A DNA stretch of 64,000 nt from Chimonanthus salicifolius. Lineage: Eukaryota > Streptophyta > Magnoliopsida > Laurales > Calycanthaceae. Made by a program: the position numbers and the translations under genes. The number at the start of each line of letters is the position of its first letter. The first letter of the stretch is position 1. The notes under the pieces are model-generated. The model had not been told where the DNA came from and made no database searches. It saw only the letters and a list, made by a program, of their open reading frames with translations. The stretch lies in the NCBI GenBank assembly GCA_013350335.1, contig CM023535.1:39864069-39928068 (forward strand). Direction: 5' to 3'. This document shows positions 13,150 through 54,865 of this stretch, in pieces.

Positions 13150-13335
13150 ATTAATCCTCCTGGCGGGAATCTCACCGCCTAAGGAGGCCCCACAGTTGCA
13201 TCACGGGCATTCCGACGGAGTGTGGGCTCCGGTGTCCATAACCGTCAGATAATCCTCCTGGCGGGACATCTCACCGCCTAAGGAGGCCCACAGTTGCATC
13301 ACGGGCATACCGACGGAGTGTGGGCTCCGGTTTCC
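13150..13335. repeat. Two-copy LTR block (period about 97 bp)
   Basis: Each copy carries AATCCTCCTGGCGGGA, then CCTAAGGAGGCC, then CGACGGAGTGTGGGCTCC. The CGACGGAGTGTGG core is the counterpart of the CCACACTCCGTCGGGG block seen twice in every full LTR of this family (9163, 42070, 42467, 51000, 54093 on +; 35890-35990 and 62450-62560 on -). Confidence 0.8.
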
Positions 13336-13644
13336 ACAATCATCATCCCATGTCCATGCATGAGATGCCAATGTATATATAAAACATGTAAATAATATCC
13401 ATCATTCAAAACCAATAAAATAAACATGAGTCTCATAAAAACCAAGATAAAACTGTGGTTACAAGTAGGTAGGAAACCTACCGAAGATTAGCTTCGGTGT
13501 TTGTTCTTTCTTAAAGCGTCACTTGCTCACGACTTGCACGCCGTTCAACTTCTGCTTCCTTGTTATACAATCAGCAAGTCAAGTACTTGATCTACTTGAT
13601 TTCTAATCAAGTTTAGGTCTCATATATCATAAAAGTACCTTGGT

Positions 13645-14720
13645 AGGGTTCGGCCATACAACATGGCCGAACCATACCACTTTGGTTTAGGTCCATACAT
13701 CCAATCCTATGATCATTCCATCTTTGATCAATTCATCAATAATTACCTTTATGCCATTTAGGCTAATTTGTTTAATTTTCCTTAAACACCACTAATCATA
13801 TCCAAACCAACTTAGTGGGGTCCTTTACATCATTCATACATACATATAAATTAACCACTAAGTCCATCCATCAACATTAGTAACTACACACTAGGGTCAC
13901 CAATGACCATTAGTGGGGTTCGGCCATACTTCATGGCCGAACCTCACCAATCTGATTTTTGTCCTACTTTCCATCATTATCATGATTGATCAAATTAATA
14001 TTAGATCTATAACTAAGCATAGGTGTTTCTTAGAACAAAAGCATAAAACAAACCTTAGCTTCCAACATGATTTTAATCCAAATCTCCCATCAAAACAGTC
14101 CATATGGCCGAACCCTTATGGTTCTTTTGCTCAATGGTTCCATTATTTACATACCAATTGGACTCTACCCTTTAGCCATGTTAACCACATGGTTCAGCCA
14201 TCCAATGGCTGACCCAAAACAGCAAACTTATATTCATTTAAATCCCATAAAAACACCATAATCTTGTATGGTTTTTATCTCTCAAAACCATCAGAATTAC
14301 CATACAATAATCACATGATTTCATGGGGTTCGGCCATACTTATTGGCCGGACCCTATGGCCTTTGATTTGAACCTCTTAAAAATTTATCTTATGTCTAAT
14401 TTAATCATCCAAAACAGTCCATCATTTGCATGGTTTTAACTTACAAAAACCATCAACATGACCATAACATTTCATGGGGTTCGGCCAACCAAGGTGGCCG
14501 AACCCTATGGCCCATATTTTCTAACTTTTAAATCTCATCATACAATTTTTAAACCAATGATTAATTCGGCCATACATGACCAAATCATGACCTTTAAATC
14601 CCTGATTCATAATCCTTTATCTTGCATCTTAAACACATATAATTCTCCATAATTTTTGGATGGTTTTTAGCCTCCAAAACCATCAATCTTAACCAAATAA
14701 TTTCATGGGGTTCGGCCATT
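13645..14720. repeat. GGTTCGGCC palindrome array of LTR I
   Basis: Full hairpins at 13645-13673, 13916-13944, 14191-14215 (both arms changed: TTCAGCC with GGCTGA), 14326-14354 and 14476-14506. Half copies occur near 14100 and 14706. Confidence 0.85.
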
Positions 14721-16501
14721 ATCCATTTTATCATTTTTAAACGACCATTACCCAAAGTTTAAACCTTGATGCATTCAGCCATACCCATGGCCCAAAACAT
14801 GTTCCATTTGTCCCATCTTATTAAACAAAAATCCATGGAAATGCTTACCAAATTCCAAGCTTCTCTTCTTGTCTTTGCTCTTTGCCTTCTTCCCTCTTGT
14901 TTCCTTCTTTCTTCCTTAGCTTCTAGCCGAATTGACCTTGCTGGAATCCCTTGGAGTGATTCAACCAAATAAGGTTTTGATTGAGAGAAAAACAGAATTT
15001 CAGCCTTGATGTGAACGATCACCACTTTGACGTGCAACTTCTTTGTTCTAAGTCCACTAACCTTGGTGGTGTGATCGGCCAAATGAATGATTTGTGGGAG
15101 AGAACCAGCAGCCACGGTTTTGTCTCTTGGAAGGTGAAAGAATGATCAAAGGAGAGAAAGAGAGATAAGATGGATATGCTTAAGTGTTGGGAGTTAACCA
15201 AAGGTGGTGACCCTTGATGGCACCCCCTTGGTAACTCCCCTCCCCATCATGTCTTTCATTTACTCCCTTTGTTAATCAACCCAACCTCCCTCATCTCTCC
15301 TCATTAATCCTTGATAAAACCAAGGAGGCATTGGGTGCCATCCAAGGCACCCCTTGGCACCAACCGATGCACCCACTGAATTCAGCCCATGCATCTCATG
15401 AGATGAGATGTTGCCGCCCATCCTTGGTGTCCCTTGGCTTGGCCAAGGCACCCTTTCACTCCAACGGCTGGGATTGATTCTCTAAGTATTGTGTGAGATT
15501 AAAACACCCTTCCATATCCATTTAACTCACTTGACTCAAGGCCCTTTTTATTCCAACTCAACTCACCCAACACAACATACTTAATGCATCATATTTAATA
15601 CATTTGAGTCAACTCATTTCTTAATTAAAACCCAATCCAATTCAGTCCCAAATTGACCTGAATTAACTCACACTTGAGCTCATTTGAGGGCCCACACAGG
15701 TCAGCCGTGGTCAATCTTGGTCAACCCGACCCATTGGGTCCCCATTTAGCTTGTTGACCCGTTTTGACTCCATGACCCATTTATGGGTTGTTTTAGCCAT
15801 TTGCATTTGGTTTGCACATGTGCATCAAGCCTACCCATTTATGCTCCACTTGATTTCCAATCAATCCAGCTTAACTCCATTAAATTTGGGCTCACTCGAT
15901 GGTCTAATAAGTCCATTATGACCCACTGGGTCCAATTGGGTCCTTTGACCCAATTACCCATATTGACCCAAATTGATGTACATTACCCATCCAATCAAAT
16001 TTGACATTTATAATGTGCTCATAGGGTCTTAGTTTGAGCAATGGGCCCCACTATTTTCTCATTTAACATCATAATTAATAAATTTACCAATCTAGGGGTA
16101 TTTTCGTAATTATCCATTTCATTGAGAAATTGGGGTGTTACAGGGCCGATCTTGACTGCACCGAGGAGTCGGTGAGATAAGACTGGTCGAGCTGATAGTT
16201 AAACCAAATACATATTTCCAAGTTGGGTTCCAATTCACTGTCAAATTTCCTCTCTAGGTTTTTTATAATTTAACCATTTGTTCTACTAAGCTTAGGGATA
16301 GTCCTCTCTAAGGTGTGGGTGCCACCTAAATTCATCTATGGCCATTTTACCTATTTTGTGTTGCCATAACGATGAGCTTCAATCTAGTGGAGCATGATCT
16401 TTACTCTTTATCATCTTGGATCTTCAAGCTTCCAGCAAGTGCTTCTTTTCGAATCACAGAATTGACAAACAAACAGGCTTGGCCAAACCGAGGCAATAAC
16501 A

Positions 16502-24238: not shown

Positions 24239-24944
24239 ACTGTAACACCCGCCCCTTTTTCACTCGCTTTTCGAAAATCAGAGTATATTTTTTTTTTTGA
24301 AATGGAGAGTGAGAGAGGGCGAGGACGTCACCACGCGAGTTAAGTCTGAGCTTCTAAAGCCCGGCCCTTAACTAGCCAACCCCACGCGTGCGCGGAACTA
24401 AGTCCACGAGAACGGCTCACCGTAGGAAGTAAGCTCGCGGATTATAATCATTGCGGAACATGATAATAGAGTCTATCCTACCGATTTTTAGATAGAATGG
24501 AAGATACAACATTGAATTACCAAAATGCCCCTATGATTCATATTTATATCACAAAATATAATCGTCCATGACTAAAGTCCAAACCATCGCGAGAAATATA
24601 ATTTATACAGTCTGACAAGCTAAGTTACTCAAATTACATTTCCAAAATATAAAACTTAAATAAATTTAGTATCCGCTTCCCAAGCTCCTAAGCTTGGCCT
24701 CCGGTATGTCCACCGTTTCCTCCATCTCCTGTGTCATCATCTAGGGTAGAAGTAGGGCGTTAGTCAACGCGTCCAGTAGGACTCCGAGTAGGGCTAGCAC
24801 ATGGATTAGTGATAACACGCATACCGATACAATAAAATATAACAAAATAAGCATGTAATGAATGTTATGCCATGGGTGCCTATATCATGTGTCCCACCCA
24901 TCATCCGTATGATCATACAATGTATTGTCCCCATGTTTGCTTCT

Positions 24945-26837: not shown

Positions 26838-28240
26838 TATGGCCAAACATTTTTCTTCCAATGTTACATAAATCTATGCTTAATCCATTCCTCTTATTTT
26901 TCCTTAAACCATCTCTAATCCATTTATTCTTAATCTATCTCACCCAGTTTATCCATTTCTTACTTTATCTTTGGATGGATCTTAGATCCATGGCCCATGA
27001 TGTTTTTGGCCATTATCTAATAAATGGATTCCATTTTTTTTTTTTAAACCATAAACAAAAATCTAAACTCTTGTTTAGAAATACTTATGGATCCGACGGC
27101 TCCTCCGGTCTTTCTTTCTCCTCTTGATTTCCTTAGCCTCTTTTCTTCTTCCTCTCCTTGTTTGATCGGCTAGATGTGCTTGATCAATGGTGAAACATGC
27201 TTGGATCGGCTAAGGTAGATGGGGTTTAGGTTGAGAGAGGGAGAGTATGGAGATGAGGGAGAGATCTTCAAGGGTCTTGGTGGCCCAAAGCTTGCCTTCT
27301 CCTTCTCTTTTCTTCTCTTCTCTTTCTAAGTTTTTCTTCTAAGTTTTTTTTTTTTTCCTTTCTTGAAAGATAGGGGACGTTTTTTTTTTTTTGTGTGTGA
27401 AGAGAGAGAGAGTGTGAAATGGTTTGTTTGGAAAGAGATGGAGATGGGTGGAGTAGCCTACACTCAAACATTCATTTCCTCACCAACCAACATGGGCATT
27501 AATGGTGGTGGTTGGGATAAAACCACCACTTAAGCCCATGGTTTCATTTTTGTGTTTCTTAGGAGTGGTTTGTGTTTGTTTGAGGGGTTTTGACCATTTG
27601 ACCAATTTAAATGAGCTTGATTAACTTAAATCAATTTGATGCTTAGGTTAAGTTAATTAATTACTTCCCACTTAATTTAATCCCATTCAATTCCCTCTAT
27701 AAGATCCACCCATGGTTGACCAAGTCAACCATGGTGGTCGGCCCCACCATCCTTGGGTCCATTGGGTCCCATATGGTTAGTTGACCCAATTACTTACCAT
27801 TGACCAATTAAATGAATTAACTCTAATTCATGGTCTATTGGGTAATCATTGGGCCCATGGCCCAATTAGATTCCCTCCTTATCCACTTACCTTAGGGTTG
27901 GAATCGATTTTTGTTCCATTGGGTCCCACATGGCTATCGGGCCCACTTTGACCATCGTTGACCCACTTAGTCCTCATTGACCCATTAAATGGATTTCATC
28001 CAATCCATGGTCCAATTGGACCATTCTTGGACCCTTGTCCCAATTTTTTATCCATTCGGTATTCCATCATGTCAAAATTCAAATTAAAATCAACAAATGC
28101 CAAATATATATTGATTTAAAATTTCGGGCTATTACACACCATGGCCGAATCTCACCCTTTTTAATTTGGTCCCTTTTATTTAACTGATCTCATCCAAATG
28201 ACCCATTTAAAACCCTCAATCCATAAAACACACCTTGATG

Positions 28241-29524
28241 AGGTTCGGCCATACAACATGGCCGAACTTCATCATCTTGGTTTTGATCCTTTAGTCCCCT
28301 TTAATTAAGTCTCATTGTCAATCCATTCATCTAATCATTCACACATTATCCATCTAACACACATAACATCATAAGTCCATAAAAATATTACCCATGGGGT
28401 TCGGCCATACATCATGGCCGAACCCATGATTCATCAATTTCTCATTTTTACATTCTAGATTGTATTTACGGTTTTGCCATTGGTCTAACCCATGTTTAAC
28501 CTTTCACTCACTTTAATCCATCATACATTGGCCCTATGTCCAGCAAATGAGTCCCATGGGGTTCGGCCATACACCATGGCCGAACCCATGGTTCCTTACT
28601 TTCACCTATTGTAACGCCCGCCCCTTTTCACTATGCTTAATTGACCGAAAATCAGAGTCTATTTTTGTTTTTTTGAAATAAGAGTGACAAAGGGCACGGG
28701 ACGTCACAACGCGAGTTAAGTCCGAGCTTCTAAAGCCCGGCCCTTAACTGGCGACCCTACGTGTGCGTGCTCGAGGAATTAGTTTCCACGCACACGTAGG
28801 GTTGGTTAGTTAAGGGTCGGGGTTTAAAAGCTCGGACTTAACTCGCGTCGTGACGTCCCGCGCCCTTTGTCACTTTTTATTTAAAAAAAAAACAAAAATT
28901 AACTATGTTTTTCGGTCTATTAAGCATAGTGAAAAGGAGCGGGCATTACACCTATTTACAATTTTGCCATTTTTTCCCTTAGATAATCATTTGTACAACA
29001 ATTGTTTAACCTTGCTAACAACCTATGTCCTCAAACATTACTCTATTTAATCCCTTCAAAGTCCTTCAAATCATTAACATGCATCCACCAATTTCATGTT
29101 TTGAAACCCTTAAAAAAAAAATATTAAAACAGTCCACTTAAATTCAATATCCAAAAGCTCTAAGTCCATACATATTCTTTGGTGGGGTTCGGCCATACAA
29201 CATGGCCGAACCTCACCCTTTTAATCCATGACTTTCCACCCATTCCATACATGGTTCATGATTAGCATCTTAGCCATAATAACATTAGGGTTCGGCCATG
29301 CAATGGCCGACCCAAAACCTTAACCTTATCTCCATTTAAAACACCTTTAAAACCTTCATAACATTGTATGGTTTTTAGCTCTCAAAAGCCCATAAAAATA
29401 ACCAAGTCTTTTCATGGGGTTCGGCCATACATATGGCCGAGCCCTATGATCCATGTTCTTCCTTTTTTAAACATCATTAACCATGATTTTAACCCTTGAT
29501 AGGTTCGGCCATACAATGGCCGGA
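28241..29524. repeat. GGTTCGGCC palindrome array of LTR F
   Basis: Hairpins at 28241-28268, 28396-28423, 28559-28588, 29185-29213, 29288-29313, 29416-29445 and 29501-29524. The 29185 copy has flanks GGTG and CACC. The 28559 copy has CATG and CATG. Confidence 0.9.
28610..28950. mobile_element. 341-bp fold-back insertion of two inverted LTR U5 ends, TSD CCTAT
   Basis: The left arm 28610-28769 starts TGTAACGCCCGCCCC. The right arm 28787-28950 is its imperfect inverse, ending GGGCATTACA. The spacer is 17 nt. Each arm equals the last ~160 bp of a chromovirus LTR of this family: A-rich tract, GACTTAACTCGCGTCGTGAC, GTTAAGGGTCGG, then the CACGCACACGTAGGG block. Perfect CCTAT repeats flank it (28605-28609, 28951-28955), and the host LTR sequence continues on both sides. 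It has no U3, no primer site and no coding capacity. The 5-bp duplication and LTR-type ends argue for retroelement integrase rather than a DNA transposase. Confidence 0.9.
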
Positions 29525-30002
29525 TCATGTTTCCTTAACCATTTTATTTAACAAAGGTTTATGGAGCACTTACCAATTCCGCGACTCCTCCGGTTCTTTC
29601 ACTCTTTCTTGATCTTCTCCTTCCTTAGTCCTTCCTTCTTGATCTTTTAGCCGAGCCTAACCTTGCTGGAAACCCCTTGGAGTGGTTCAGCCAAATGAGG
29701 TTTTGATTTGAGAGAGAGAGAGAAACTTGGCCTTGGATGAGAGTGATAAAACCTTGAGATGTAACTCCTTTTCTCTAAGTCCTCTTGTCTTGGTGGAGGG
29801 ATCAGCCAAGGACTGATTTGTGTGATAGACAACCAGCCAAGGTTCTTTGTCTTGAGAGGTGAAAAACGGCCAAGGGAGAGAGAGAGAGAGAGAGACTAAA
29901 ATGACAAATCCTTTGGTTAATAAAATTCAGCCCATGGTGGTGTCTCTTGGTGGCACCACTTGTAACTCCCCTCCCCATTCATTTCTTTCACTTAATCCAT
30001 TT

Positions 30003-30680
30003 GGGGGTTTCATCCTTGAGATGAAACCCTCCCAACGGTTTTGGCTCTTGGGCTGCCTTGGTGCAACCTTCTCCATGTGTGAACCCATTTGTAACTCCAT
30101 TCCTTAATGCCTCCCTTGGGGGCTTCATCCTTAAGATGAAACTCCCAAGGCACCCAACGGCTTCCAAAGATTATCTTGGTGTATACTTTCCTCCCATTAT
30201 CCTTCTTTCATTACCGTTGCATGTGAGAGTTTCATATTGAAATGAAACTCCCAAAGGCTACAACGGCTAGCCTTAGTTGGCCTTGTGTAACCGCCACTCT
30301 TCATTAGTTGCCCATGTGGGAGTTTCATCCATGAGATGAAACTCCTTGAGCCCAACGGTTTTGTCTTAGTCCTTGGACCACCCAACCATCCAACTCCCCT
30401 TTAATTCTTATTTGGATTTGAATTTGAAATAAGAACTCCTCCACTTTTCATTTAAATCTTCATGTGGGGGTTTCATCTTTGAAATGAAACTCCCATGTGC
30501 TAAACCGTCCTTCCCATTGACTCTCCATTTGAAGTCCCATGCATAGAATAAACTCTCATGCAATCCAACGTGTATATTATTTTGAATTTGAAATACAACC
30601 TCTCCCCATATGTAACTCCCACAAAAACGTCACTTACATTCATTGTTTATCTAAGAGTTTCATGCATGAGATGACCTCCC
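30003..30680. repeat. GTTTCAT/ATGAAAC hairpin series in U3 of LTR F
   Basis: Six hairpins with arms GGGAGTTTCAT and ATGAAACTCCC around a 5-8 nt loop, at 30003-30033, 30118-30146, 30225-30252, 30318-30345, 30466-30494 and 30654-30680. Related copies are at 48983-49016 and about 49078-49107 in the 3' LTR of element A. Confidence 0.85.
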
Positions 30681-30751
30681 ATGCATCCAACGTGTACCCC
30701 ATCTTTTTGGGGTTTGAAACAACAAACCTTCTCTTTCACATTTCACTTACA

Positions 30752-30905
30752 TTACTCTACTCAATCCAAACTCAACATTTAATTCAACTCAATCCAAACT
30801 CAATCATTTAATTCAACTCAATCCAAACTCAATCATTTAATTCAACTCAATCCAAACTCAATCATTTAATTCAACTTAATCCAAATTCAATCATTTAATT
30901 CAACT
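30752..30905. repeat. 29-bp tandem repeat
   Basis: About 4.5 units of ATTTAATTCAACTCAATCCA plus AACTCAATC, starting near 30781, 30810, 30839 and 30868. Confidence 0.85.
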
Positions 30906-31176
30906 TAACCCAATTAGGCTTGAGCTCACCTAATGGTCAATCAAGTCAAATACGACCCATTGGGTCTCAATTGGGTCTTTTGACCCAAATAATCACATTG
31001 ACCTAATTAGATGTACATTACCCAATTACTTTAATTTGATCCTTATAACATGTACATTAGGTCTTAATTGAACAATGGACCCCACTATTTACCCATCTAA
31101 GGTCATATCCTTTTAATTCACCATTTCAATGGCAATTTTCGTAAATATTGATAAACTGAAAATCTGGGATATTACA

Positions 31177-34100
31177 TAATCCGCCAGATATTCCATCCAT
31201 CTGCGCTGCCTTAAGTTGAGCTCTTTCTGATCAAACAAATACTTCAAGCTCTTATGATCTGAAAACACTTCAAATTTCTCGCCATAAAGATAATGTCTCC
31301 AACTTTTGAGAGCGAAGACCACTGCGGCTAGTTCCAGATCGTGCGTAGGACAGAGACGTTCATGTATTTTCAACTTTCTTGATCTGTATGCCACCACACG
31401 ATTACTTTGACTGAGTGCACACCCCAGTCCCTCTCCAGAAGCATCACATTGTACCTCATAACACTTGCCTCTTTCTGGCAAAATTAGGATAGGAGTAGTG
31501 GTAAGTCTCTTCTTCAGCTCTTCAAACCTCCGATTGCACAAATCTGACCATTCATATTTGATTCCTTTCTGAGTGAGTCGAGTAAGTGGAGATACAATTT
31601 TTGAGAAGTCCATGATAAATTTCCTGTAATAACTAGCCAATCCCAAAAAGCTACGGATCTCGGTTACATTATTTGGTGCTTTCCAATCTCTTACTGTAAT
31701 GGCCTAGAAATTGTAAATCAATATATAGGTGGATATGATTTATTTTAATGGTAGAAATTGGAAATTTGATGGAATAAATGGTGAATGGATCAAAATATGG
31801 ACAAAGGCCCAAGTATGGTCCAATGGACCATGGATTGGATTTAAATTCATTTAAAGGGGCAATGATGGTCAATTAGGCCAAAGATGGTCAAATTGGGCCC
31901 AATATCCATTTGGGACCCAATGGATCAAGATGATGTAAGCTCTAAGGTAAATGGGTAGGAGGTGAATGTAATTGGGCCATGGGCCCAATGGTGATCCAAG
32001 TAGTTGAAAATGGATTAAATTAAATCACCTAAGTTGGAATTTATTTAAAACTAGGTGACATGGCCAAATGGGACCCACCTCCACCTCACCAAGTGAGGTG
32101 GCGTGTGGACCAAGGATTGGTGGGGCCGGCCACCATGGTTGAATTGGTCAACCATGGGTGTAAGCATGAAGGGAATTTAAGCAAATGGAATTAAGTTAAA
32201 TGGAATTAATTAACCTAATGATCTAATTAATTAATTAATTAAATTATCCAAAAGGTGGTCAAAGGGGTCAAAGTTGGAAGACCGAACCACCCATTTCAAG
32301 ACACCAAAACGTTGGCTAAGGTGGTGGTTTATCCCAACCACCACCATAAAGCATAGAAAATATCTTATGTGGTTGATGGGAAAATTTATGGTGAAGTGTA
32401 GCTTAAGCAAGCCTTGGGATAAGATGGGTTTTCTTTTCATTCTCTCCCATTTCATTCTCTTCCTCTCTTTCCCTCTCTCATAGCCGTCCCACACTAAGAA
32501 GAGAAAGAAGAAGAAAAGCTTGGAAGAAAAAAAAAAATTAGACTCTGATTTCGGTGAAAAGGGGCGGGCGTTACACTTACTGCCGCTACCTTAGCTGGGT
32601 CCACGGCTATACCTTCTTATGATATAACATGTCCCAAAAAGTTGACCTCAGATAGCCAAAATTCACATTTACTGGCTTTAGCATATAGTTTGTTCTTCCT
32701 CAAAGTGTCCAGAACTATTCTCAGGTGCTCAGCATGTTCTTCTTGAGTTTTAAAGTAAATCAAAATATCATCAATAAACACAATGACAAATTGGTCCAAG
32801 TAAGAACGGAAAATCCTATTCATAAGATCCATAAACACAGCAGGTGCATTGGTGAGTCCAAATGGCATGACTACAAACTCATATAATTCATATCGCGTTC
32901 TGAAGGCCGTCTTTTCTATGTCCTCCTACCTAACCCGGATTTGGTGATATCCGGACATCCGATCAATCTTAGAGAAATGACTGGAACCTTTAAGTTGATC
33001 AAATAAATCATCGATCCTGGGTAGAGGGTACTTGTTTCTGACCGTCAGCTGGTTCAGTTTTCGGTAATCCACACACATACGGAGTGAACCATCCTTCTTC
33101 TTTACAAATAAAACCGGAGCTCCCAAGCCGATGTACTGTTCCGAATGCACCCCAGTCTGAGTAGTTCATCAAACTGCTTCTTTAACTCGGACATCTCTGC
33201 TGCTGCCATTCGGTAATGTGGTAATGACACTAGTGCAGTGCCAGGGTACAACTTGATTTCAAAATTGATCTCCCTCATGGGAGGCAAATCAGGGAGTTCC
33301 TTTGGAAAAACGTTTGCATAGTCCCTTACTATTTCCGGAAGTTCAACCACCGGTGCCTTGTTGATTCTGATAATGTTCAATACCAGATGATTCAACCCTT
33401 CATGTAGTCTGCTTTGTTTATCAGCACGCACCACATGTTGTTTTCCCTCGGGCGACCAAAATGTCACCCTGCGACGATAACAATCAATGTTGGCCTTAAA
33501 GCTAGCCAACCAATCCATGCCGAAAATAATATCATATTCTAACATATCGAGTACCAAATAATTGAACTCAAATATGAGTCCAGCAAGTTCAGTATTCACT
33601 GCTGTGCATATAAGTCCCAATGATGTGTCTCCGACGGGGGATACAATGGTGAGTGATGTGGACAGTTTTTGTACCAATGTACCAGTAGCAGTTATAAATG
33701 CAGTAGATATGAAAGAGTGACATGCTCCCGAATCAAATAATGCAAAGGTGTAGGAACTACTGACTACTGCTTTACCTTGAATCACAGAATGATCCTCTAC
33801 TGCTGGAGGTGTTAAGGTGAATACCCATCCAGATCCTGTAGGAGGCCATCCCGCCTGGTTAACTGTCCTGCCCCATGTGAATTAGCTGGCCTAACTGGTG
33901 GATGAAATGAACCTCTGGTATTAGAGGGTTTGTTGAGTTGTGGACATTCCCTCTTAAAATGGCCAGGCTGATCACAATGAAAGCAGTTGCTCCCACCTCT
34001 GGGAGCCTGAGTGACTGATGCAGATGGGGAGGGATGATTGGGACGAAAGCCCCCTGTTGACCCAGTGGATAGTGAGGGTCTACTAGAGTTCGGTCGGAAC

Positions 34101-35224: not shown

Positions 35225-36371
35225 ACTGTAATGCCCCGCCTTTTTTCACTCACTTCTTCCAGTAAATCAGAGTCTTTTTTTTTTATAACAGAGTAGAGTG
35301 AGAGCGCGGGACGTCACGACACGAGCTAAGTCCGAACTTCCAAAGTCCGACCTTTAACTGGCCAACCCTATGTGTACATGGACTAAGTCCACAAAAATGG
35401 TTCACACATAGCAATATAAACATGCGGAATAATAACATCACATTTGCGGAAACATAATAGAACCAAGTTTTATTCCATTCAGATAGCAAAGTACGTCAAG
35501 TCCTTAATCATCATTAAAATACCATAATTATCCAAAAAAAATCCAACCATCTAAGTTATTACATTCCGAAATCTTGATACTCAAAATACAAGTTCATGAG
35601 TAACTTTATTAAAAATATAAACTAAATCATCCAAGCTCCTATGCCTGGCCCGTCTTGCGTTCATCGTTCCCCTGATTTCCTGTGTCATCCACTAGGGTAG
35701 AAGTAGGGCATTAGAACAACGCGCCCAGTAGGTATTCCAGTTACGACTAACACATGGCTAGTACAAAACATATATAATAACGTAATGTCAAAAACCATAT
35801 AAATCCATGCCATGCAATGATGGCAAATGTAATGAGTCCTACCCATCACATGTACATAGAAGTACCCACCACATAGGTCTTTCGGACGCCCCGACGGAGT
35901 GTGGACCCTCTGGTTTCTTCCTGATGGAAAAGTACATCAAGGTACCCGACATAGGTTTTTTGGACGCCCCGACGGAGTGTGACCCCTCCGGTTACAAATC
36001 CTCCACGCCATGCCATGCATGAGGTGCCAATGAGACAGATGTTATTTTATAACGTAAACATAGCATTTAAAGAATCATATTTAAAACACATACTTTTTCC
36101 TCATATAGAGATAGCATTTAAAATTCAATGTAAAGCATATCCTTTGAAACATAATATCATCAAAAATAAGATAAAACAACTGTACAAAACCCATGGTTTC
36201 AAAGAGGTGGAATCCTACCAAAGACCGTTACGTGTCCTTGCGTCTTTCGTCCGATAACCGTTCACGATCGTAAACACCTTGTGAGGTCCCGTTACCTTAT
36301 AATATAACAATTAATTATAACCAAGTCCCACTTGATTTTCAATGTTCTAAGTCCATAAACAAAACCCCATG

Positions 36372-38028: not shown

Positions 38029-39887
38029 ATCTTCCCTTGGTCCCATATTTAGAAAGTGCTTAAGTTAGCCAACCCCCTTTAGGCCCGTGCGTCCCTTGTT
38101 TAATTTTAGTAAATATCATGCACCCCTTGCTATTTAATTGGGACTTGCCGACCTTGGCTTCCCATATTTAGAATGTGCTTAAGATAAACAATGCCCCAAT
38201 GCCGTGTGCCCTTCTTTTAGAAGGCGCTATGCACATATCAGTAATCATAGCCTAAGCAATCTTTTAATTTAGACACTTCTTTTATTTAATTTAAGACAAT
38301 ATGCATACCCTTTTTAAAAGATCCCATGCGCCTGTCATAGATATGAATCTCTCTGTACATGGCCATGCAATATTATCTCCTTCCTTATTTATATAATATT
38401 GCAATACCAATTTAAATTCAATTCCATTTAATTTTTATTGAAAACAATTCCAAAATCGTTGGGTCCTAATTGGGCCAATAACCCAACTCTTTACCCAATT
38501 TAAGATCCATAACTAATGTTCACAAATTAAATGGATTAATTTCATACAAAATAATAAATTGAAAATCCGGGGTGTTACAGGAATTGCATAAAAGGAGAGA
38601 AGGACAAGGGCACACGGTTTACACCCACCATAGCTGAATTTTCTCTCCATTTCAATTCACATTCACGGCAAGAACAAGAGAAAGAAAGAGCAGCCAACAA
38701 GAGGTGTTCTTGGTTTGGAGAAAGAATCAAGACGAAAGGGGAAGGATTGGAAATCGGAACCGGTTAGTATTTATTATTTCATAAATTTTGGCCAAACCCC
38801 ATGGAAGAAAATTGGGAGTTGATTGGAGTATTAATTAATGGAATGTTGAACCATAGGGTTCGGCCATGTGATATGGCCTGTAACACCTCGGGTTTTCAGT
38901 TTATTATTTATTTAATTTTGATTATGAATTTTGGAATTAAATCTTATATGGATAAGGAATTGGGCCATAACCCAATTAGGACCCAACCAATGTTGGAATT
39001 TGTTTTACTAAAATTTAAATGGGTAGGATTAAATTAGTGGTGAATCATACCCAATTTTGAATAAAGGATATTATGGCCGAGTAGTGGATTTGAAATATCC
39101 AAGTAGATGTTAAAAAAAAAATCAAATAAAGATTATCTTGGCCGAATTTTAGATAGTGATTTACATATTATGCACATGAGAGATATGTGGGATTTTTAAA
39201 TCCACAATGATATGCTAGATATTTAAAAAGGGATGAAATATCTATGAATTAAATTAAAAGATTATTTGGATTATGATTAGGGTTATGCGCATAGTACTTG
39301 CTAATAAGAATTAAAGGAAGTCTTAATAAGGTAAGGGAAAGTCGGATATGGCTAATTAAAGAGGGAAAGTCAGCCATGGTTAAATAAGGAAGGTTTGATA
39401 TATGTCCAGTGTTTTGGTTATAACTTTTCACTCTTATATCTGATTTCTTTGATTCTTTTTGTGTTAGAAAGAATATTTCAAGATCTACAACTTTGTAGTT
39501 TACCACTTTTTCTGATTCGGAAGTTAACAAGGTTAAAACTGTGCTACAATATAGTATATGTGTAAAAAAAAAATGGGAAACACAAGAGGGCAAGATTCTA
39601 TTAAGAACATTCTAATATGGGATTAAGGAGAGCTTAATAAAAAGAGAGATCCATAGCGGTGCACGGTTTTTACAAACCCATTACCAAGTTATATTCCTCT
39701 CTCTCTTTCTCCCTCTCTCAAGTCCTCTCTTACACGGCAAGAGCAAAAGAAGAAAGGGCAGCAACTAGAAGGAGTTCTTGTTTGGAGAAAATCAAAGAGA
39801 AAGGAAGAGAAAGATTAGAAGAGCAAGGAAGAGGTTAGTATCTAAGTATTAATGTTATAATTTTATTTATGAAATCAAAAGAACCAT

Positions 39888-41620
39888 AGGGTTCGGCCAT
39901 GGTGGTTGGCCGAACCCCATGAAGAGAAAATTAGAGATGGGTAAATGGTTTTAAAAGAGAAGAAAGAACCATAGGGTTCGGCCATAGTGCATAGCCGAAC
40001 CCCATGGAAAGATTTGCTTAATTAATTGGTTTTAAAGATTGGAAACCATGGAGAGTGTTGATTTATTAATTGGGTTTATGTTCCTAGATCTTAAGTCACC
40101 TTTGGTGATTGTATGTTTTAGATTCAAGAAAATCAATGAAAGAATATGGAATATGGGTCGGCCATGGCATGCCCGAACCATGGTTGTTTTATGGCTAATG
40201 GAGGGGATCTAAAATAATAAAAAGGAGGAGTGAGGTTCGGCCATGGTGTATGGCCGAACCCCACCAAACATTATATGGATTGATGATTAATTTTGGATTA
40301 GATATAAACCAAGGGCCAAGATCATGAACCATAGGGTTCGGCCATGGTGCTTGGCCGAACCCCATGGGTTAAAATTGGAAAGAAAATGTAAAAGATGGAC
40401 CTAGTTCTAAAAGGGTGAGGGTCGGCCATAGTGCATGGCCGAACCCCACTAGAGTTATTTTTGGAAACCTTATTATGGAAAGTATTGCTAAATTTGGGAA
40501 GCAATCCACATATGGAAGGAGTGGTTAATTATGGAAAAACAATCTAATTTTGGAAGCTGTTTCCAAATATGGAAAGGAGGTTACTTATTAAGGAAAGTTT
40601 CCATTCTTGGAAGTGGATATTACTACTAGAAAGTATCTACTTAAAGACCATAAAAGTTATTTATGGAAACCATACCAAGAATGGAAGGTAAGGCTTGATT
40701 ATGGAAGCTAATTTAAATGAACAGATTGGTTGCCATGAGTGAGGTTCGGCCATAACTAGATTAGTTTTTGGAAACCTTGTGAATTTTGGAATAAGATATT
40801 CAATCATAGAAGGGTTGTTGTTTAATTAAGAAACCTTCTAAATGTGGACCTTAGGTTAAAAATGGAAGGTAGAGTTATTTTTAGAAAACTTTCCATCTAT
40901 GGAAGGAGGTTTATATTTTTGGTAAGTTAAATAGGGAAACCTTCTAATGATAGTAGGAGAGATTAATAAAGGGAAATTCTATTCTTGGAAGGAGAAATCT
41001 AAATTTGGAGACCTTCCAATTATAGAAAGGTGGAGATTAATTGGAAATTATACACCATCGGGTTCGGCCATGGTGTATGGCAGAACCCCATGTTCTAAAT
41101 TAAGGGATTAAATGTGTCTTTAAATTATGGTTTAAGGACTAATTTATGAATCAGATTATGAACCTACATTATGAGTTAGGTTATGTTAGTTTTAATTAAA
41201 ATAAAGGGTACAATGTATGATATGAATTTATGGAGAAAGTAATGGCAAAAATGTAATTAAAAAATACCAAAGTAGGAGAACCATGGGTTCGGCCATGATG
41301 TATGGCCGAACCCCATGAGATGTGATTGATGAACTTATTTGATTAGAGAAATTTTAAGGTCTAATTATGAAAGATTTAAAGGGAAGAGGAAGTCAATGGC
41401 ATTTTGGTAAATATGAGAGAATGTTGGACATTGGGTTCGGCCATGGTGTATGGCCGAACCCCATGAGTTATTGTATGGTATTATGTATTTTGGAAGCATG
41501 AATGAATAACTTGGAACCTAAGCAAAGAGAAGGGGCTAGGGTTACCAACAGTGACATTTTTGTAAATATGTATAAAAAATGGTAAACCTTGGGTTCGGCC
41601 ATGGTGTATGGCCGAACCCC
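39888..41620. repeat. GGTTCGGCC palindrome array of LTR B (11 copies)
   Basis: Hairpins at 39888-39918, 39973-40003, 40155-40180, 40234-40262 (GTGA/CCAC flanks), 40333-40363, 40418-40447, 41060-41090, 41285-41313, 41433-41462 and 41591-41620. A half copy is at 40742. The usual form is GGGTTCGGCCAT, loop GGTGT, ATGGCCGAACCCC, within CATAG and CATG flanks. Confidence 0.9.
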
Positions 41621-42203
41621 ATGGGGTTTTGTTTATGGACTTAGAACCTTGAAATTAGGTGAGACTTGGTGTTGATTTATCATTATATTATAAGGTAATG
41701 GGATCTTGCAAGCGGTGCACGATCGGTGATAGAACCTTGGACGAAAACGCAAGGACTTGTGAACGGTCTTAGGTACGATTCCACCTCTTTGAAACCATGG
41801 ATTATGTACTTGTTTTTATCTTATGTTTGATGAAAATGTGTTTCAAAGGATCTGATTTATTATTGAATTTCAAATGCTACGTTTACCTTGATTTAAATGG
41901 CATGGATTAATTATGTTCAAAAGGTGATTTTACATGCTAGGTTTTATTTGTATAAAGAGCATGTATTGGATATGTTTTCAAATGATGATTTTCAATGCTA
42001 TGTTTATGTTATAAAATAGCATGCGTTTCATTGGCATCTTATGCATGGCATGGGGTGAAGGATTTATAACCGGAGGGGTCACACTCCGTCGGGGCATCCA
42101 AAAAACCTATGTGCAACACCTTGATGTGGTTTCCATCAAGAAGATTTCCAGAGGGTCCACACTCCGTTGGGGCGACCGAAATACCTATGTGGTAGGCACA
42201 TTT

Positions 42204-42284
42204 TGTAACACCCCGCCCGTTTCACTGTTAAAATTTCAGAGTTTATTTTTTTTTTTTAAATAATAATAATCAATAAGTGATCGG
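42204..42284 (-). repeat. Inverted copy of U5 end at the left tip of element A
   Basis: TGTAACACCCCGCCCGTTTC onward is the exact inverse of 43268-43348 in the same LTR as far as I can align it, including the T12-14 tract and AATAATAATCAATAAGTGATC. The switch point lies in GTGATCGG, which occurs in LTR sequence (50810-50817) and, as CCGATCAC, in the U5 region (about 43268). Confidence 0.92.
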
Positions 42285-42466
42285 AAGACGGTCCAAAGGA
42301 AGGATCAAACAAAGTAAACTATTGTAGGTTTCCTACCTTGTTGTAACCACACAACTTATTCGCTGTTTTATGTTTATTTGAATAAGTTATTTGAATCATA
42401 TGTTATATTTACAAATGGCATGTTGCATAGACATCTCATGCATAGCATGGGATGATGGGGAAGTAA

Positions 42467-42616
42467 CCGGAGGCCACACTCCGTCGGGGCGTCCGAAAGA
42501 CCATTGTGGGGTACCCTGATGATGAGAATCCCATCAGGAGGAATCCGGAGGCCACACTCCGTCGGGGCGTCCGAAAGACCACTGTGGGTTAATTTGACGA
42601 TGAGAATCCCGTCAAG
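42467..42616. repeat. Two-copy CCGGAGGCCACACTCCGT block in 5' LTR of A
   Basis: Units at 42467 and 42545, 78 bp apart, each with GTCGGGGCGTCCGAAAGACC and followed by ATGAGAATCCC. GGAG and CTCC inside the unit can pair. Same block at 51000 and 51078 in the 3' LTR. Confidence 0.9.
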
Positions 42617-43350
42617 TGATGGCTATGTTGAATGGTGATGGGTGGGACTCATTACATGTTCATTTCATACATAGCATATTTTTATAGAATTTGTCACACA
42701 TGAATAACTATTATTCTATTTGCATGATTTTGACTAACCATGTGGTAGCCCTATTCGGAAACACTACTGGGCGCGTTGATCTAACGCCCTATCTATACCT
42801 TTAGTGGATGATGCAGGGAAAGGAAAGAACGTGGTTGGAGAAGAGGACCAAGTACGAAAACTTGGGCGATTTGAATGATTGCAATGGACTATGCATGGAT
42901 TATTTATGGACTTATTAGTTGATTTATTTGGAACAATGTAATTTGTTAAATTAGATGTTGGCATGTAATAAGTAGTTAAGTAGATGCTATGGTTGGATTT
43001 ATTTGAATGGTTTGGAATGAATAGTAGACTAAGGTCATATAATACTTTTGGAAAATAAATAAGGTACTTTGCTATCTAAAAATGGAAATTGGATTAATCA
43101 TAGGTTCTATTATAACCTCAGTTAGATCTAGGCTAAGTTAATTCCGCTAGATAAATATGTACCATGTGCGGATCAGTTTTATGAACTTAGTTCATACGCA
43201 CATGGGCTTGGCCAGTTAAGGGTCGGATTTATAGATCCGAACTTAACTCGCGTCGTGACACTCCGCCCCGATCACTTATTGATTATTATTATTTAAAAAA
43301 AAAAAATAAACTCTGAAATTTTAACAGTGAAACGGGCGGGGTGTTACAGT

Positions 43351-43362
43351 TGGTATCAGAGC
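43351..43362 (+). other. Primer-binding site of element A
   Basis: TGGTATCAGAGC, perfect initiator-Met tRNA complement, two bases (GT) after the LTR end. It is followed by a 391-bp leader to the ORF, in which I see no other feature. Confidence 0.95.
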
Positions 43363-43753
43363 GAAACGGGAAGTTGAATCTTCCGAAGTAAGATTAAGAC
43401 GGTTTCATGTCTCACTGACGGATAAGAATCCCAACTGACCGACTCTTCGGAGTCCGCTGACTGGGGGCCGGATTAATTTACTTCGTGGACTCAGACTGAA
43501 CAAATCAATCTGAGAACAACAGTGAAAGATAGCAAAAGTACATTATTATAAATCATCTATCAAACGTAGCAAAATAGGATATACATTCCCCAATACTCCC
43601 CAAATGAGAAAAACAAACATAGGGAATTTAGAGACTCTCCCCTCAAAAACAAATAGAAAATCAAGTTGGCTTATTTGGAAATCTCCCTAAAATTGTGAAA
43701 AATACAAACTGTACGAGGAAACTAAGTCAATAATGTTTTTATGACTTAGGGAA

Positions 43754-48385: not shown

Positions 48386-48447
48386 TTTATTTTGAAATCC
48401 TACTTCGTTCGATTTTCGGGACGAAAATTATTAAAAGATTATTGTAT
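48386..48447 (+). other. Degenerate polypurine-tract region of element A
   Basis: Contains TTCGGGACGAAAATTATTAA, a decayed form of the TTCGAGGACGAA-plus-G-rich purine run that precedes the 3' LTR in chromoviruses. The G-rich purine run itself is missing; the sequence next to the LTR is AAAAGATTATTGTAT. Confidence 0.6.
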
Positions 48448-51400
48448 TGTAACACCCTGGAATTTCAAAGTTATCAGTTTATGTGAAAATATTCATATTT
48501 ACGGAATTGCCATTGTGATAAAAATTGATTGGAATTTAAATGGGTCAATGGCTCAATCGAGACCCAAAGGATGATAGTTGGTTTACAAAACAAATAAATG
48601 GGTAAGATAAATTTAAACGGGTCAAGAATCATATTTGGGTCAGATTTTGATAAATGGGTCAAAATGGCTAGATGGGACCCAATGGGTCGTGTGAATGGCA
48701 TGATTAACCATGGAGATATGAGAATGATGGCTTTGAGAGTTACAAATGTATGAATGAAGGAGAATGAAGCACATGGGAGTTTTATTTGGTTGCATGGAAA
48801 TTATGGCCTATGCATGAAACTCCAAAGATGGAGACAATTGGAGTTGCCGTTTCATGGAGTTACAAAAGGGGTCCTTGACTTTTCAAATTCAAAAAGGTTA
48901 GATTACACGTTGGAAAGGGCATGAGGGTTTATTCCATGCTTAAGTATTCAAAGAGACAACCAATGGAGGGAGGATGAAGCACATGGGAGTTTCATTTACA
49001 TGTGAAACTCCCACATGCAAAATTAATGCAAAATGGATAGTGTGAGGAATGCACACAGCAAAACCGTTGGGAACCCTTGGTGTTTCATTTCATAGATGAA
49101 ACCCCAAGGAACTTAAAGGATTCTAATTATGGAGAGATGAGTTACACAAGGGCTGAATTAACCTTGGACTGTTTTTGATCAAGCAAAGGATTTTCACTCT
49201 CTCTATCTCTCTATCTCTCTTGGACGTCCTCTATCTTTCTAAAAACTAAGAGCAGTAGCTGGTTGTTAATCAGTCCTTGGTTTGATTCCTTTTCATCAAG
49301 ACAAGTTCAGCAAAAAGAGAAGGAACAAGCGGGAGTAAAGATCAAGTGGAGGAGTCGCGGAAACGGTAGGTGTTCGATAAACTATGTTGTTTAATTAAGA
49401 AATATGATCCGGCTATTGGATGGCTGAATCTAACAAGTGTTAAATGTTGGTTAGAAGTACAAGAATGAGATCAAAAGATGGACCATAGGGTTCGGCCCAT
49501 TGGATGGCCAAACCCCATGGAAATGATGGATTTGTTTAGATGGTTTTTGGAAATTAAAACCATACAAATTTGGGACTGTTTTTAGATGATTTTAAGTATG
49601 GGTTTTAAAAAGGTTAAAACATAAATAAGGAAGTTTGTTTTGGACAAAAATGAATGATCAAGAAGTTCAAAACCAAAGGTCATAGGGTTCGGCCACCATG
49701 GAGGGCCGAACCCCATGCAAATAATGGTTTGTTTTGATGTGTTTGGAACAAATAAACCATGAAGTTGATGGACTGTTTTGGGTTATTAATTTAAGATGTA
49801 AGTACATGTTTTACAATGGTTTAAAAACATGGATTTGGGTGCTGGTTTCAGACCTAAGATGAAGGACTAAAGGTTCAAAATTAATCTCATGGTGTTCGGC
49901 CAATATACATGGCCGAACCCTATGAAATTGGTCTAATTTTGGAGGACTGTTTTGAAGGTTAAAAACCTGATTTAGATATACGGATATTACCTGGTTAATT
50001 GAGGTTTAAAAACAGTAAAAGTAATCATTGGGTTCAGCCATGATAGAGGGCCGAACCCCATGTAAAACGGTGTGGGTTTTCATGTTGAGAACCCCATGGA
50101 AATCATGGAAACCATGAAAATCCATGGACTGTTTTGTGGAATAATTGGGTTAAGTTTATGATGAACATTAGATGTTATAAATATGCTTTGATATAAGAAT
50201 AATATATGTTGTTTATGGAGTTAGTATGGGTAAGTAATCAGCCAATGTGAATGATGGAGATTGAGCAAAAAGAGCACATTGGTGAGGTTCGGCCATGTGT
50301 ATGGCCGAACCCCACTAATGATAATTGTGGGACATAATTGTTGGTTTATATGAGGATATGGAGGGTTAAAGAAGGATCAAATTAGGTGATGAGGTTCAGC
50401 CATGTGTATGGCTGAACCCCACTAAAGATGGTTTTATGTATGGTGATGAAAGTTAGTTAATTTAGAGCAAAGGTTGGTCTCAATGGCACAATTGTAATTA
50501 TGGCTGAAATGATCAAAAATAAAATGATCATATGATGGGATAAATGGGCTAAAACCAAAGTGGTAAGGTTCAGCCATAATGTATGGCCGAACCCTACTAA
50601 GGTTCGTTTAGAGGTTTGGGTAATTAGATAGGTTTTAATTAAATAAATGATTGACCTATGTTTTAATGGATGAGGTTCGGCTATGGCTTTGGCCGAACCC
50701 CACTAGGTGATTCTTGGAACATTAAGCTTTGCTGGAAATTAGGTGGATAAATGATTAACTTGCTGTCATGTACATAGGGTATTCGGATTTTTAGAACGGT
50801 GAGTGAGCCGTGATCGGAAGACGGTCCAAAGGAAGGATCAAACAAAGTAAACTATTGTAGGTTTCCTACCTTGTTGTAACCACACAACTTATTCGCTGTT
50901 TTATGTTTATTTGAATAAGTTATTTGAATCATATGTTATATTTACAAATGGCATGTTGCATAGACATCTCATGCATAGCATGGGATGATGGGGAAGTAAC
51001 CGGAGGCCACACTCCGTCGGGGCGTCCGAAAGACCATTGTGGGGTACCCTGATGATGAGAATCCCATCAGGAGGAATCCGGAGGCCACACTCCGTCGGGG
51101 CGTCCGAAAGACCACTGTGGGTTAATTTGACGATGAGAATCCCGTCAAGTGATGGCTATGTTGAATGGTGATGGGTGGGACTCATTACATGTTCATTTCA
51201 TACATAGCATATTTTTATAGAATTTGTCACACATGAATAACTATTATTCTATTTGCATGATTTTGACTAACCATGTGGTAGCCCTATTCGGAAACACTAC
51301 TGGGCGCGTTGATCTAACGCCCTATCTATACCTTTAGTGGATGATGCAGGGAAAGGAAAGAACGTGGTTGGAGAAGAGGACCAAGTACGAAAACTTGGGC

Positions 51401-51899
51401 GATTTGAATGATTGCAATGGACTATGCATGGATTATTTATGGACTTATTAGTTGATTTATTTGGAACAATGTAATTTGTTAAATTAGATGTTGGCATGTA
51501 ATAAGTAGTTAAGTAGATGCTATGGTTGGATTTATTTGAATGGTTTGGAATGAATAGTAGACTAAGGTCATATAATACTTTTGGAAAATAAATAAGGTAC
51601 TTTGCTATCTAAAAATGGAAATTGGATTAATCATAGGTTCTATTATAACCTCAGTTAGATCTAGGCTAAGTTAATTCCGCTAGATAAATATGTACCATGT
51701 GCGGATCAGTTTTATGAACTTAGTTCATACGCACATGGGCTTGGCCAGTTAAGGGTCGGATTTATAGATCCGAACTTAACTCGCGTCGTGACACTCCGCC
51801 CCGATCACTTATTGATTATTATTATTTAAAAAAAAAAAATAAACTCTGAAATTTTAACAGTGAAACGGGCGGGGTGTTACAATAGGGCGGGGTGTTACA
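48448..51899 (+). mobile_element. 3' LTR of element A (3.45 kb)
   Basis: Starts TGTAACACCCTGG, like solo LTR 8088. U3 has hairpins near 48983-49016 and 49078-49107; palindromes lie at 49488-50701. It matches the 5' LTR from 50810. The canonical end GTGTTACA is at 51881 but is followed by an extra 18 bp, ATAGGGCGGGGTGTTACA, before the TSD, so the terminus is doubled. Confidence 0.9.
49488..50701. repeat. GGTTCGGCC palindrome array of 3' LTR A (8 copies)
   Basis: Hairpins at 49488-49517, 49685-49714, 49893-49920, 50030-50059, 50285-50313, 50393-50420 (TTCAGCC paired with GGCTGAA, a compensated change), 50567-50594 and 50674-50701. The last five are more diverged than in LTR B, and flanks of the GTGAGG/CCCCAC type dominate. 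Confidence 0.9.
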
Positions 51900-52749
51900 C
51901 ATTTATGTACAGGTGATGGGTGGGACTCATTGCATATTTGTCATCATTGCATGGCATGGATTTATATGGTTTTGATATCACTATGTTATATGATATGTTT
52001 TGTACTAACCATGTGTTAGCCGTAACTGGAATACCTACTTGGCGCGTTGTACTAACGTCCTACTTCTACCCTGTAGTTGGTGATACAGGTAATCAGGGAA
52101 ATAATGAAACCAAGATGGACCAGGCATAGGAGCTTGGAAGATCTAGTTTATATGTTTTGAAATAAATTACTCATGAACTTGTATTTAAGTATTTGGATTC
52201 CAGAATGTAATAACTTAGATGGTTGAATGTTTTGGTTTGATGATTATGGCGTACTTTGTTATCTGAATGGATTAGAACGTGGTTCTAATATAATTCCACA
52301 TATTGATGATTATGATTCCGCGGTTGTATGATTTTATTCCGCAAGTCGGTATGGCTATGTGTGAACCATTTTATTGGACTGAGTCCATACATACATAGGG
52401 TTGGCCAGTTAAGGGTCGGACTTAGCTCGCGTCGTAACGTCCCGCGCTCTATCACTCTACTCTGTTATAAAATATATATATATATATATACACTGAATTT
52501 ACGGGAACAAGCGATTGAAAAAGGGCGGGGCGTTACATGGCCGAACCCCATGAAGGAACCTTGATAATTCTTTTAATGGAAGAACCTTGATGATTCTTTT
52601 TAATGGAAGGATTTTGGAGATTTTTAATGGAAGTTCATTGGTTATGTTTATGGGTTGGAAACCATGGAAGGAACACCAATGTTTTGAAGAGATTAAATGG
52701 AGGGTTAAGTTGTTTTAATTCCATTTAAAAGAGAACCTTATGAACCATA

Positions 52750-53711: not shown

Positions 53712-54865
53712 CATCGGGTTTTGTTTATGGACTTAGAACATTAAAAAAATCAAGTGGGACTTGGTTATGATTAATTGTTATATTATAAGGTAACGGGACC
53801 TCACAAGGTATTTACGATCGTGATCGGTTACCGGACGAAAGACGCAAGGACACGTAGCGGTCTTTGGTAGGATTCCACCTCTTTGAAACCATGGTTTATG
53901 TGCATTGTGTTTATCTTATTTTTGATGAATTTATGCTGCAAAGAATATGTTTCAAATGATGATTTTAAATGCTATGTCTATATGAGGAAAGAGCAAGTGT
54001 TTTAAATATGATTTTAAATGCTATGTTTATGTTATAAAATAGCATGTGTTTCATTGGCATCTCATGCATGGCATGGGGTGGAGGATTTGTAACCGGAGGG
54101 GCCACACTCCGTTGGGGCGTCTAGAAAACCTATGTGGGGTACCTTGATGTACTTTTCCATCAGGAAGAAACCAGAGGGTCCACACTCATTCAGGGCGTCT
54201 GAAAGACCTATGTGGTGGGTACTTCTATGTACATGTGATGGGTGGACTCATTTCATGGCATGGTTTATATGGTTTTTGACATTACGATATTATTATATAT
54301 GTTTTGTACTGACCATGTGTTAGCCGTAACTAGAATACCTACTGGGCGCATTGTTCTAACGCCCTACTTCTACCCTAGTTGATGATACAGGAAACAAGGG
54401 GAACGATGAACGCAAGGAGAGCTAGGCATAGGAGCTTGGATGATTTAGTTTATGTTTTGAATAAAGTTACTTATGGACATGTATTTGAGTAACTAGTTTC
54501 CGGGAATGTAATAACTTAGATGGTCGGATGTTTATTTGGATAATTATGACGTTTTAATTATGATTAAGGACTTGACGTACTTTGTTATCTGAATGGAATA
54601 GAACTTGGTTCTTTATTATTCCGCATGTTATGATTCCGCAGTTATGATATTTTATGCCGCAAGTTGATATTATTATGTGTGAACCATTTTCGTGGACTTA
54701 GTCCATGCACACATAGGGTTGGCCAGTTAAGGGTCGGACTTTGGAAGTTCAGACTTAGCTCGCGCTATGACGTCCCGCGCTCTATCACTCTACTCTGTTA
54801 TAAAAAAAAAAAAAATAGACTCTGATTTACGGGAAGAAGCAAGTGAAAAAGGACGGGGCGTTACA

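What the first reader, a model, noticed from the sequence alone, without database searches (positions are those of the whole stretch)
28610..28950. A 341-bp mobile palindrome built only from two LTR U5 ends, with its own TSD
Seen: arms of 160 and 164 bp, 17-nt spacer, each arm equal to the last ~160 bp of this LTR family, and perfect CCTAT duplications. It has the same architecture as the left tip of element A but is free-standing. Inference: snap-back, self-primed minus-strand strong-stop (or early minus-strand) cDNA became double-stranded and was integrated by the element's integrase. Together with element A this suggests a recurrent route producing fold-back mini-elements, distinct from solo LTRs, TRIMs and MITEs. 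The arms differ at several positions, so it is older than A.
Basis: partly seen in the sequence, partly recalled or inferred. Interest (0 to 1): 0.92.

Follow-up and report, generated by a model that had tools for sequence, protein, structure and literature searches.

The report
Self-primed retrotransposon end, inserted as palindrome
A plant retrotransposon seems at times to let the first stretch of its DNA copy fold back and copy itself, and the resulting palindromes are found inserted in this genome, alone or as false left ends of longer elements.

Summary
P (28610-28950) has arms of 160 and 164 nt, a 17-nt spacer and a CCTAT duplication; a paralogous empty site holds one CCTAT. Both arms are the U5 end of a Del-like Ty3 LTR. 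One exact-pattern search of the own genome (852.6 Mb; a lower bound) found 8 U5 palindromes, 0 for the reversed control. Two of 8 are free-standing with 5-bp duplications (P; a 267-bp one on C6 with identical arms). Six of 8 adjoin a primer-binding motif: element C (three near-identical copies), D, E and F. C, D and E were traced to an ordinary 3' LTR and a matching 5-bp duplication; F has U5 palindromes at both ends. P, C, D and E turn around in a conserved, covarying LTR stem-loop. In D and E the self-copied arm keeps one base from beyond the stem, a trace of priming from the folded cDNA end; nine positions separate D from E, so they look independent. I read this as self-priming of minus-strand strong-stop DNA followed by integrase insertion. 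Whether P was inserted alone or is the solo-LTR remnant of a capped element is open.

The parts
28605..28609 (.). target-site duplication CCTAT, left copy
   Evidence: single CCTAT at paralogous site 63299-63379
28610..28769 (-). P left arm, 160 nt of U5 in antisense; read as the self-primed copy
28770..28786 (+). 17-nt spacer, matches the sense loop of the LTR stem-loop and is continuous with the right arm
28787..28950 (+). P right arm, 164 nt of U5; with the spacer read as the complement of the RNA-templated cDNA
28951..28955 (.). target-site duplication CCTAT, right copy
28137..31176 (-). LTR fragment that P sits in (U3 tip at 31176; limits partly inferred)
42199..42203 (.). element A target-site duplication CATTT, left
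   Evidence: joined flanks match three other LTRs across the site at 82-86%
42204..42284 (-). element A left cap: 81-nt inverted U5 tip, 100% identical to its own U5
42277..43348 (+). element A 5' LTR remainder (1072 of 3434 nt), identical to 50810-51881; shares 8 nt GTGATCGG with the cap
48448..51881 (+). element A 3' LTR, 3434 nt
51882..51899 (+). element A right cap: ATA plus a second 15-nt U5 tip
51900..51904 (.). element A target-site duplication CATTT, right
43161..43207 (+). conserved covarying LTR stem-loop, copy in A's 5' LTR (others at 24380-24426 -, 35366-35412 -, 12622-12668 -, 61913-61959 -, 52354-52400 +, 54672-54718 +, 9858-9904 +)

Best explanation
P is an inserted product of self-primed minus-strand U5 cDNA. 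Minus-strand synthesis starts at the primer-binding site and copies U5 and a conserved stem-loop, probably near the RNA 5' end. The cDNA folds on that stem, its 3' end primes on its own U5, and copying to the 5' end makes a hairpin whose free end is a true U5 end. With a full minus strand available, the self-primed strand also copies the primer-binding site and can take the place of plus-strand strong-stop DNA, giving elements whose 5' LTR is a U5 palindrome (C, D, E; F at both ends). Alone, two U5 ends suffice for integrase to insert a palindrome with a 5-bp duplication (P and the C6 copy). Shown: anatomy, duplications, the shared stem-loop, the trace base in D and E. Inferred: strong-stop DNA as substrate, order of strand transfers, opening of the hairpin. 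Self-primed origin about 0.8; direct insertion of P, rather than solo-LTR formation from a capped element, about 0.45.
For: Palindrome, 5-bp duplication and empty-site match. Stem-loop in the 12 LTR copies aligned: 97.2% of 179 cells paired, 7 of 15 pairs with changes on both sides (1 of 500 shuffles reached 7), slid controls 16-69% paired; P, C, D and E turn around there. In D and E the arm next to the primer-binding site reads CACGCGTAGAG where outer arm and own 3' LTR read CACGCGTAGGG; that A is the next base of the antisense strand beyond the stem in both 3' LTRs. D outer arm equals its own 3' LTR U5 (0 of 139 differ), E 1 of 138, and 9 columns separate all D rows from all E rows. In C the three U5 copies differ about equally (8/146, 6/150, 6/146), as expected if the cap dates from insertion. 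Matching 5-bp flanks: P CCTAT, C6 TGCCA, A CATTT, C TTTCC, D GATCT, E GTTGG, F GAGAG.
Against: P and C lack the trace A, and P lacks three bases of the parental loop; P is old, so this is not decisive. P's arms have changed unequally: against the eight window LTRs, 13 differences fall on the right arm, 5 on the left and 1 is unclear; equal numbers are expected of two copies of one molecule (a sign test of mine by hand gives about 0.1). P's left arm is closer to a genomic LTR (96%) than to the right arm. In E the arm next to the primer-binding site differs from the other two U5 copies at 4 of 138 and 4 of 137. A hairpin has one end, and how two ends are made is not shown. The C6 palindrome turns before the loop with about 1 nt of overlap by eye, and A joins in U3, so not all cases use the stem. 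Counts come from one pattern with exact arm letters. E's GTTGG is also how the sequence after an LTR begins before the primer-binding motif, and F's GAGAG lies in a GA-rich stretch, so these two duplications are weaker. The trace A could be a non-templated base added by reverse transcriptase.
Confidence: 0.75

Rival explanations
1. P is the solo LTR of a capped element: an element with a palindromic 5' LTR (like C, D, E) inserted with CCTAT duplication, and recombination between its 5' palindrome and normal 3' LTR removed the body.
For: Such elements exist with 5-bp duplications; P has the same fold; a solo LTR with duplication GGGCC lies at 12494-16142 in this window. A hybrid arm would also fit P's unequal arms.
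Against: Shared homology would be only about 140-165 nt of U5. The second free-standing palindrome (C6, arms 0 of 129 different) has a fold not seen in C, D, E or the F end examined.
Confidence: 0.4
2. Two separate U5 cDNA ends were inserted together by one integrase complex and their inner ends joined by host end-joining at a short match.
For: Explains the short junction on C6 and the 8-nt match plus ATA-containing right cap of A; [quoted passage not shown]
Against: Does not predict the same fold at the stem in C, D and E or the trace base in D and E.
Confidence: 0.15
3. The palindrome arose after insertion, by inverted template switching in an ordinary LTR during host DNA replication or repair.
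For: U3 and U5 tips share a short inverted repeat, which could place the outer break; foldback inversions at breaks are known in yeast (PMC11724301, passages).
Against: In A, C and D the cap is about as old as the LTR pair; the event recurs at one stem in elements at different sites.
Confidence: 0.07
4. P belongs to a multiplying DNA transposon or MITE family with inverted repeats, moved in trans.
For: Terminal inverted repeats and TG..CA ends; Ginger transposons have TGTNR ends, long inverted repeats and 4-5 bp duplications (PMC2836005, passages).
Against: With P as query, 40 of 5952 candidates were scored and only P and the three C9 places (element C) matched end to end; D and E caps match their own LTRs, not one another.
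Confidence: 0.05

Closest known systems
Self-priming of HIV-1 minus-strand strong-stop DNA at the TAR hairpin
   Same: A stem-loop in R lets the first cDNA prime on itself (PMC4668388, passages).
   Different: There described as heterogeneous DNAs that go with poor strand transfer and are reduced by nucleocapsid; here the products are found inserted in a genome with 5-bp duplications.
Solo LTR
   Same: Free-standing LTR-derived insertion with a 5-bp duplication.
   Different: P has no U3; it is U5 twice, head to head.
TRIM and other short non-autonomous LTR elements
   Same: Small, non-coding, depend on another element's enzymes (recalled).
   Different: No direct terminal repeats, primer-binding site or polypurine tract in P.
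Del (Tekay) lineage of plant Ty3 retrotransposons
   Same: Likely parent family: long LTRs (about 3.35-4.5 kb in those measured), U5 end with GGG at -8 to -10 (type A in PMC4029996, passages), 5-bp duplications.
   Different: No chromodomain match in the last 143 aa of A's ORF. The words 'palindrom' and 'hairpin' do not occur in that paper's main text.
Ginger DNA transposons
   Same: Long inverted repeats with gypsy-like ends (PMC2836005, passages).
   Different: Those encode a transposase; P does not, and its arms are the U5 of a retroelement present here.
Foldback inversions at DNA breaks in yeast
   Same: Hairpin-primed inverted copying (PMC11724301, passages).
   Different: Most are 5-34 bp by the abstract shown in the listing, joined by end-joining; the passages read describe no duplicated target site.

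Membership tests
Del/Tekay-like Ty3 retrotransposon (parent of the arms) | Protease, RT, RNase H, integrase order in one Pol | tested here: met
   A's ORF 43754-48385: RVP_2, RVT_1, RNase H, Integrase_H2C2, rve below its curated cut-off, SH3_Tf2-1
Del/Tekay-like Ty3 retrotransposon (parent of the arms) | U5 end type A, GGG at -8 to -10 | tested here: met
   GGGGTGTTACA at 43348; same GGG in P (definition)
Del/Tekay-like Ty3 retrotransposon (parent of the arms) | Chromodomain at the integrase C terminus (recalled) | tested here: inconclusive
   No Pfam chromodomain at E<=1 in 47954-48385
Solo LTR | Flanked by a short target duplication | tested here: met
   CCTAT
Solo LTR | U3-R-U5 order | tested here: not met
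   Both ends are U5; no U3
TRIM | Direct terminal repeats with primer-binding site and polypurine tract | tested here: not met
   341 bp consist of two inverted arms and a spacer
MITE / DNA transposon family | Many copies of one inverted-repeat element | tested here: not met
   Only P and three C9 places (element C) matched end to end among the 40 of 5952 candidates scored; the unscored ones were not seen
Ginger DNA transposon | Gypsy-like transposase gene between inverted repeats | tested here: not met
   P is 341 bp with a 17-nt spacer; autonomous partners were not searched for
Self-primed strong-stop DNA (TAR type) | Conserved stem-loop at the fold | tested here: met
   15-pair covarying stem-loop; P, C, D, E turn around there
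Self-primed strong-stop DNA (TAR type) | Stem-loop at the 5' end of the RNA | not testable with these tools
   No transcript data; D and E share a cDNA end one base beyond the stem

The most novel reading that the evidence does not exclude
Self-primed minus-strand strong-stop DNA is a recurrent, integrase-competent by-product of this retrotransposon. It inserts alone as U5-U5 palindromes (P, the C6 copy) and replaces one or both LTRs of longer elements (C, D, E; F at both ends), a source of fold-back elements with inverted repeats moved by a retrotransposon integrase.
Probability: 0.45. Interest if true: 0.88.

Novelty: new variant of a known kind. Interest (0 to 1): 0.8.

Why it matters
Self-priming of strong-stop DNA is known from retroviral test-tube work; inserted products would show that it happens in nature, that two U5 ends suffice for integration, and that an LTR stem-loop sets the fold. 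It gives a mechanism for palindromic 5' LTRs, and a route from retrotransposon to an element with terminal inverted repeats. A transcribed palindrome of U5 could also seed small RNAs against its own family (speculation).

Tried and rejected
Distant DNA search of 72,556 plasmid records: no match. I first placed the RNA start from TATA-like motifs (at -192 to -199 in LTRb, LTRe, both LTRs of A and e10046, absent there in LTRa, LTRc, g and f); their distance to the stem varies, so I do not use it. I first read the loop orientation in C as excluding intramolecular snap-back (note); that assumed that the full minus strand snapped back. With strong-stop DNA as the snapping molecule the orientation is as expected, and the D and E trace supports it. 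The 881-bp insertion 31695-32575 (U3 part joined to a 40-nt U5 tip) was considered as another capped case; an ordinary deletion between A-tracts explains it as well. Literature: 10 searches were answered; the rows listed (12 of 182, the whole result in the others) showed no report of inserted self-primed strong-stop DNA or palindromic LTRs, in a library without most subscription journals. Guo et al. 1997 was seen only as a reference and is not held. Passages of PMC13185573 were seen and not used. A broader arm pattern and a search with A's left junction did not complete.

Full report
What is there. P at 28610-28950 consists of a 160-nt left arm, a 17-nt spacer and a 164-nt right arm, with 17 mismatches in 160 aligned pairs and 3 gap events (19 mismatches in the alignment). 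It folds better than each of 100 shuffles. CCTAT flanks it on both sides, and the joined flanks match a paralogous LTR repeat unit with one CCTAT over 81 nt without a gap. Arms and spacer are LTR sequence: the arms match U5 ends in the window, and three genomic LTR copies (L005, L006, L007) show the likely parental subfamily; their matches to one arm, or one arm plus spacer, are 90-96% identical.

The family. LTRs in this window end in GGG..TTACA and are followed by TTGGTATCAGAGC where a 5' LTR is preserved; that this is the site for initiator-methionine tRNA is recalled. A's ORF of 1543 aa carries gag, protease, RT, RNase H and integrase matches. The U5 end fits type A of the plant Del lineage (PMC4029996, passages only); no chromodomain was found.

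Element A. A spans 42204-51899 with CATTT on both sides, and its joined flanks match three other LTRs across the site at 82-86%. Its 5' LTR keeps 1072 of 3434 nt, identical to the 3' LTR, and starts with an 81-nt inverted copy of its U5; cap and LTR share 8 nt. [quoted passage not shown] Its right end carries ATA plus a second 15-nt U5 tip. I read the left cap as a short antisense U5 cDNA whose 3' end primed inside U3.

The genome. The own assembly has 852.6 Mb in 591 contigs. With P as query, 40 of 5952 candidates were scored; end-to-end matches were P itself and three places on C9. A pattern of two inverted arm words 76-136 nt apart gave 8 loci, each on both strands, and 0 for the reversed control. 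By flanks: P and C6:41195234-41195500 are free-standing with CCTAT and TGCCA; the other 6 of 8 adjoin the primer-binding motif. The three C9 loci share more than 99.6% over 4.3 kb, and I count them as one event.

Capped elements. C (C9:58582985-58595910) has a 327-bp palindrome as 5' LTR, primer-binding site, body with a nested LTR, a 3654-bp 3' LTR and TTTCC on both sides. D (C3:31925837-31934463) and E (C10:12361791-12366333, minus) have palindromes of 305 and 302 bp, 3' LTRs whose U3 starts I placed by motif, and duplications GATCT and GTTGG. GTTGG also begins the stretch between LTR and primer-binding motif, so E's duplication is weaker. F (C2:61085151-61088396) ends in a U5 palindrome with inward primer-binding motif on both sides and is flanked by GAGAG in a GA-rich stretch, so its duplication is weak too. 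F's second palindrome escaped the exact pattern, which shows that the count of 8 is a lower bound.

The fold. The 12 LTR copies aligned (eight in the window, L005-L007, and C's 3' LTR; A's identical 3' LTR left out) share a stem-loop of 9 and 6 pairs with a 9-nt bulge; 97.2% of 179 cells pair, 7 of 15 pairs change on both sides, and slid versions pair 16-69%. The shuffle control does not allow for relatedness, and one of its five measures (further pair types) was reached by 341 of 500 shuffles. P, C, D and E turn around in this stem-loop; the F end examined does so with three extra bases by eye; the C6 copy turns earlier, with a 9-nt spacer; A does not use it.

The trace. In D and E the arm next to the primer-binding site reads CACGCGTAGAG where the outer arm and the 3' LTR read CACGCGTAGGG. 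In the 3' LTRs of both, the base before the 5' stem arm is T (ATCTACGCGTG), so an antisense strand running one base past the stem ends in A. Snapping back on the stem and extending from that A gives exactly the observed arm. Nine columns separate all D rows from all E rows, and D's outer arm carries D's own unusual tip (CCTTACA), so each cap seems to come from its own element's RNA and not from a shared master. In C, D and E the loop is continuous with the outer arm, as self-primed antisense cDNA predicts. In C, pairwise differences of 8/146, 6/150 and 6/146 make the cap about as old as the LTR pair. Against this: C and P lack the A, and in E the inner arm differs from both other copies at 4 positions (4/138, 4/137).

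P's arms. Against the eight window LTRs, 13 of the 19 differences between P's arms fall on the right arm, 5 on the left and 1 is unclear; for two copies of one molecule equal numbers are expected (a hand sign test gives about 0.1). An arm partly replaced by recombination with a 3' LTR, as in the solo-LTR rival, would also give this.

Mechanism. Minus-strand strong-stop DNA folds at the stem and primes on itself; the self-primed strand copies U5 and the primer-binding site and replaces plus-strand strong-stop DNA, so that the finished DNA begins with an inverted U5. Integrase could accept it because U3 and U5 tips begin alike. Without the body, the same product with two U5 ends gives P. Self-priming at TAR, and its reduction by nucleocapsid, is described for HIV-1 (PMC4668388, passages). 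The remaining choice for P is direct insertion or solo-LTR formation from a capped element; the evidence does not decide.

Limits. 

Noticed in passing
window 51882-51899: Element A's right end carries ATA and a second 15-nt U5 tip before its target duplication.
   Followed up: partly
window 31695-32575: 881-bp insertion in a pol region with duplication CTTAC: U3-like part joined to a 40-nt U5 tip at an A-tract.
   Followed up: partly
C2:61085151-61088396 (L031 6952 to L021 1732): Element F, about 3.2 kb, has U5 palindromes at both ends with primer-binding motifs pointing inward; by eye the inner part next to one end reads as antisense integrase (not tested).
   Followed up: partly
window, e.g. 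39877-41664, 52738-53597, 62885-63995: LTR interiors hold many degenerate repeat units around GGGTTCGGCCAT..ATGGCCGAACCC, themselves small palindromes.
   Followed up: no
window 12494-16142: Solo LTR of 3649 bp with duplication GGGCC.
   Followed up: yes
window 52943-53205: Tandem array of about 36-bp units with AACCTTCTAAATATAGAAGG.
   Followed up: no
window 8609-8665: Small imperfect palindrome TGTAACCCCCATTT..AAAATGGGAGTTACA followed by partial repeats of its end.
   Followed up: no
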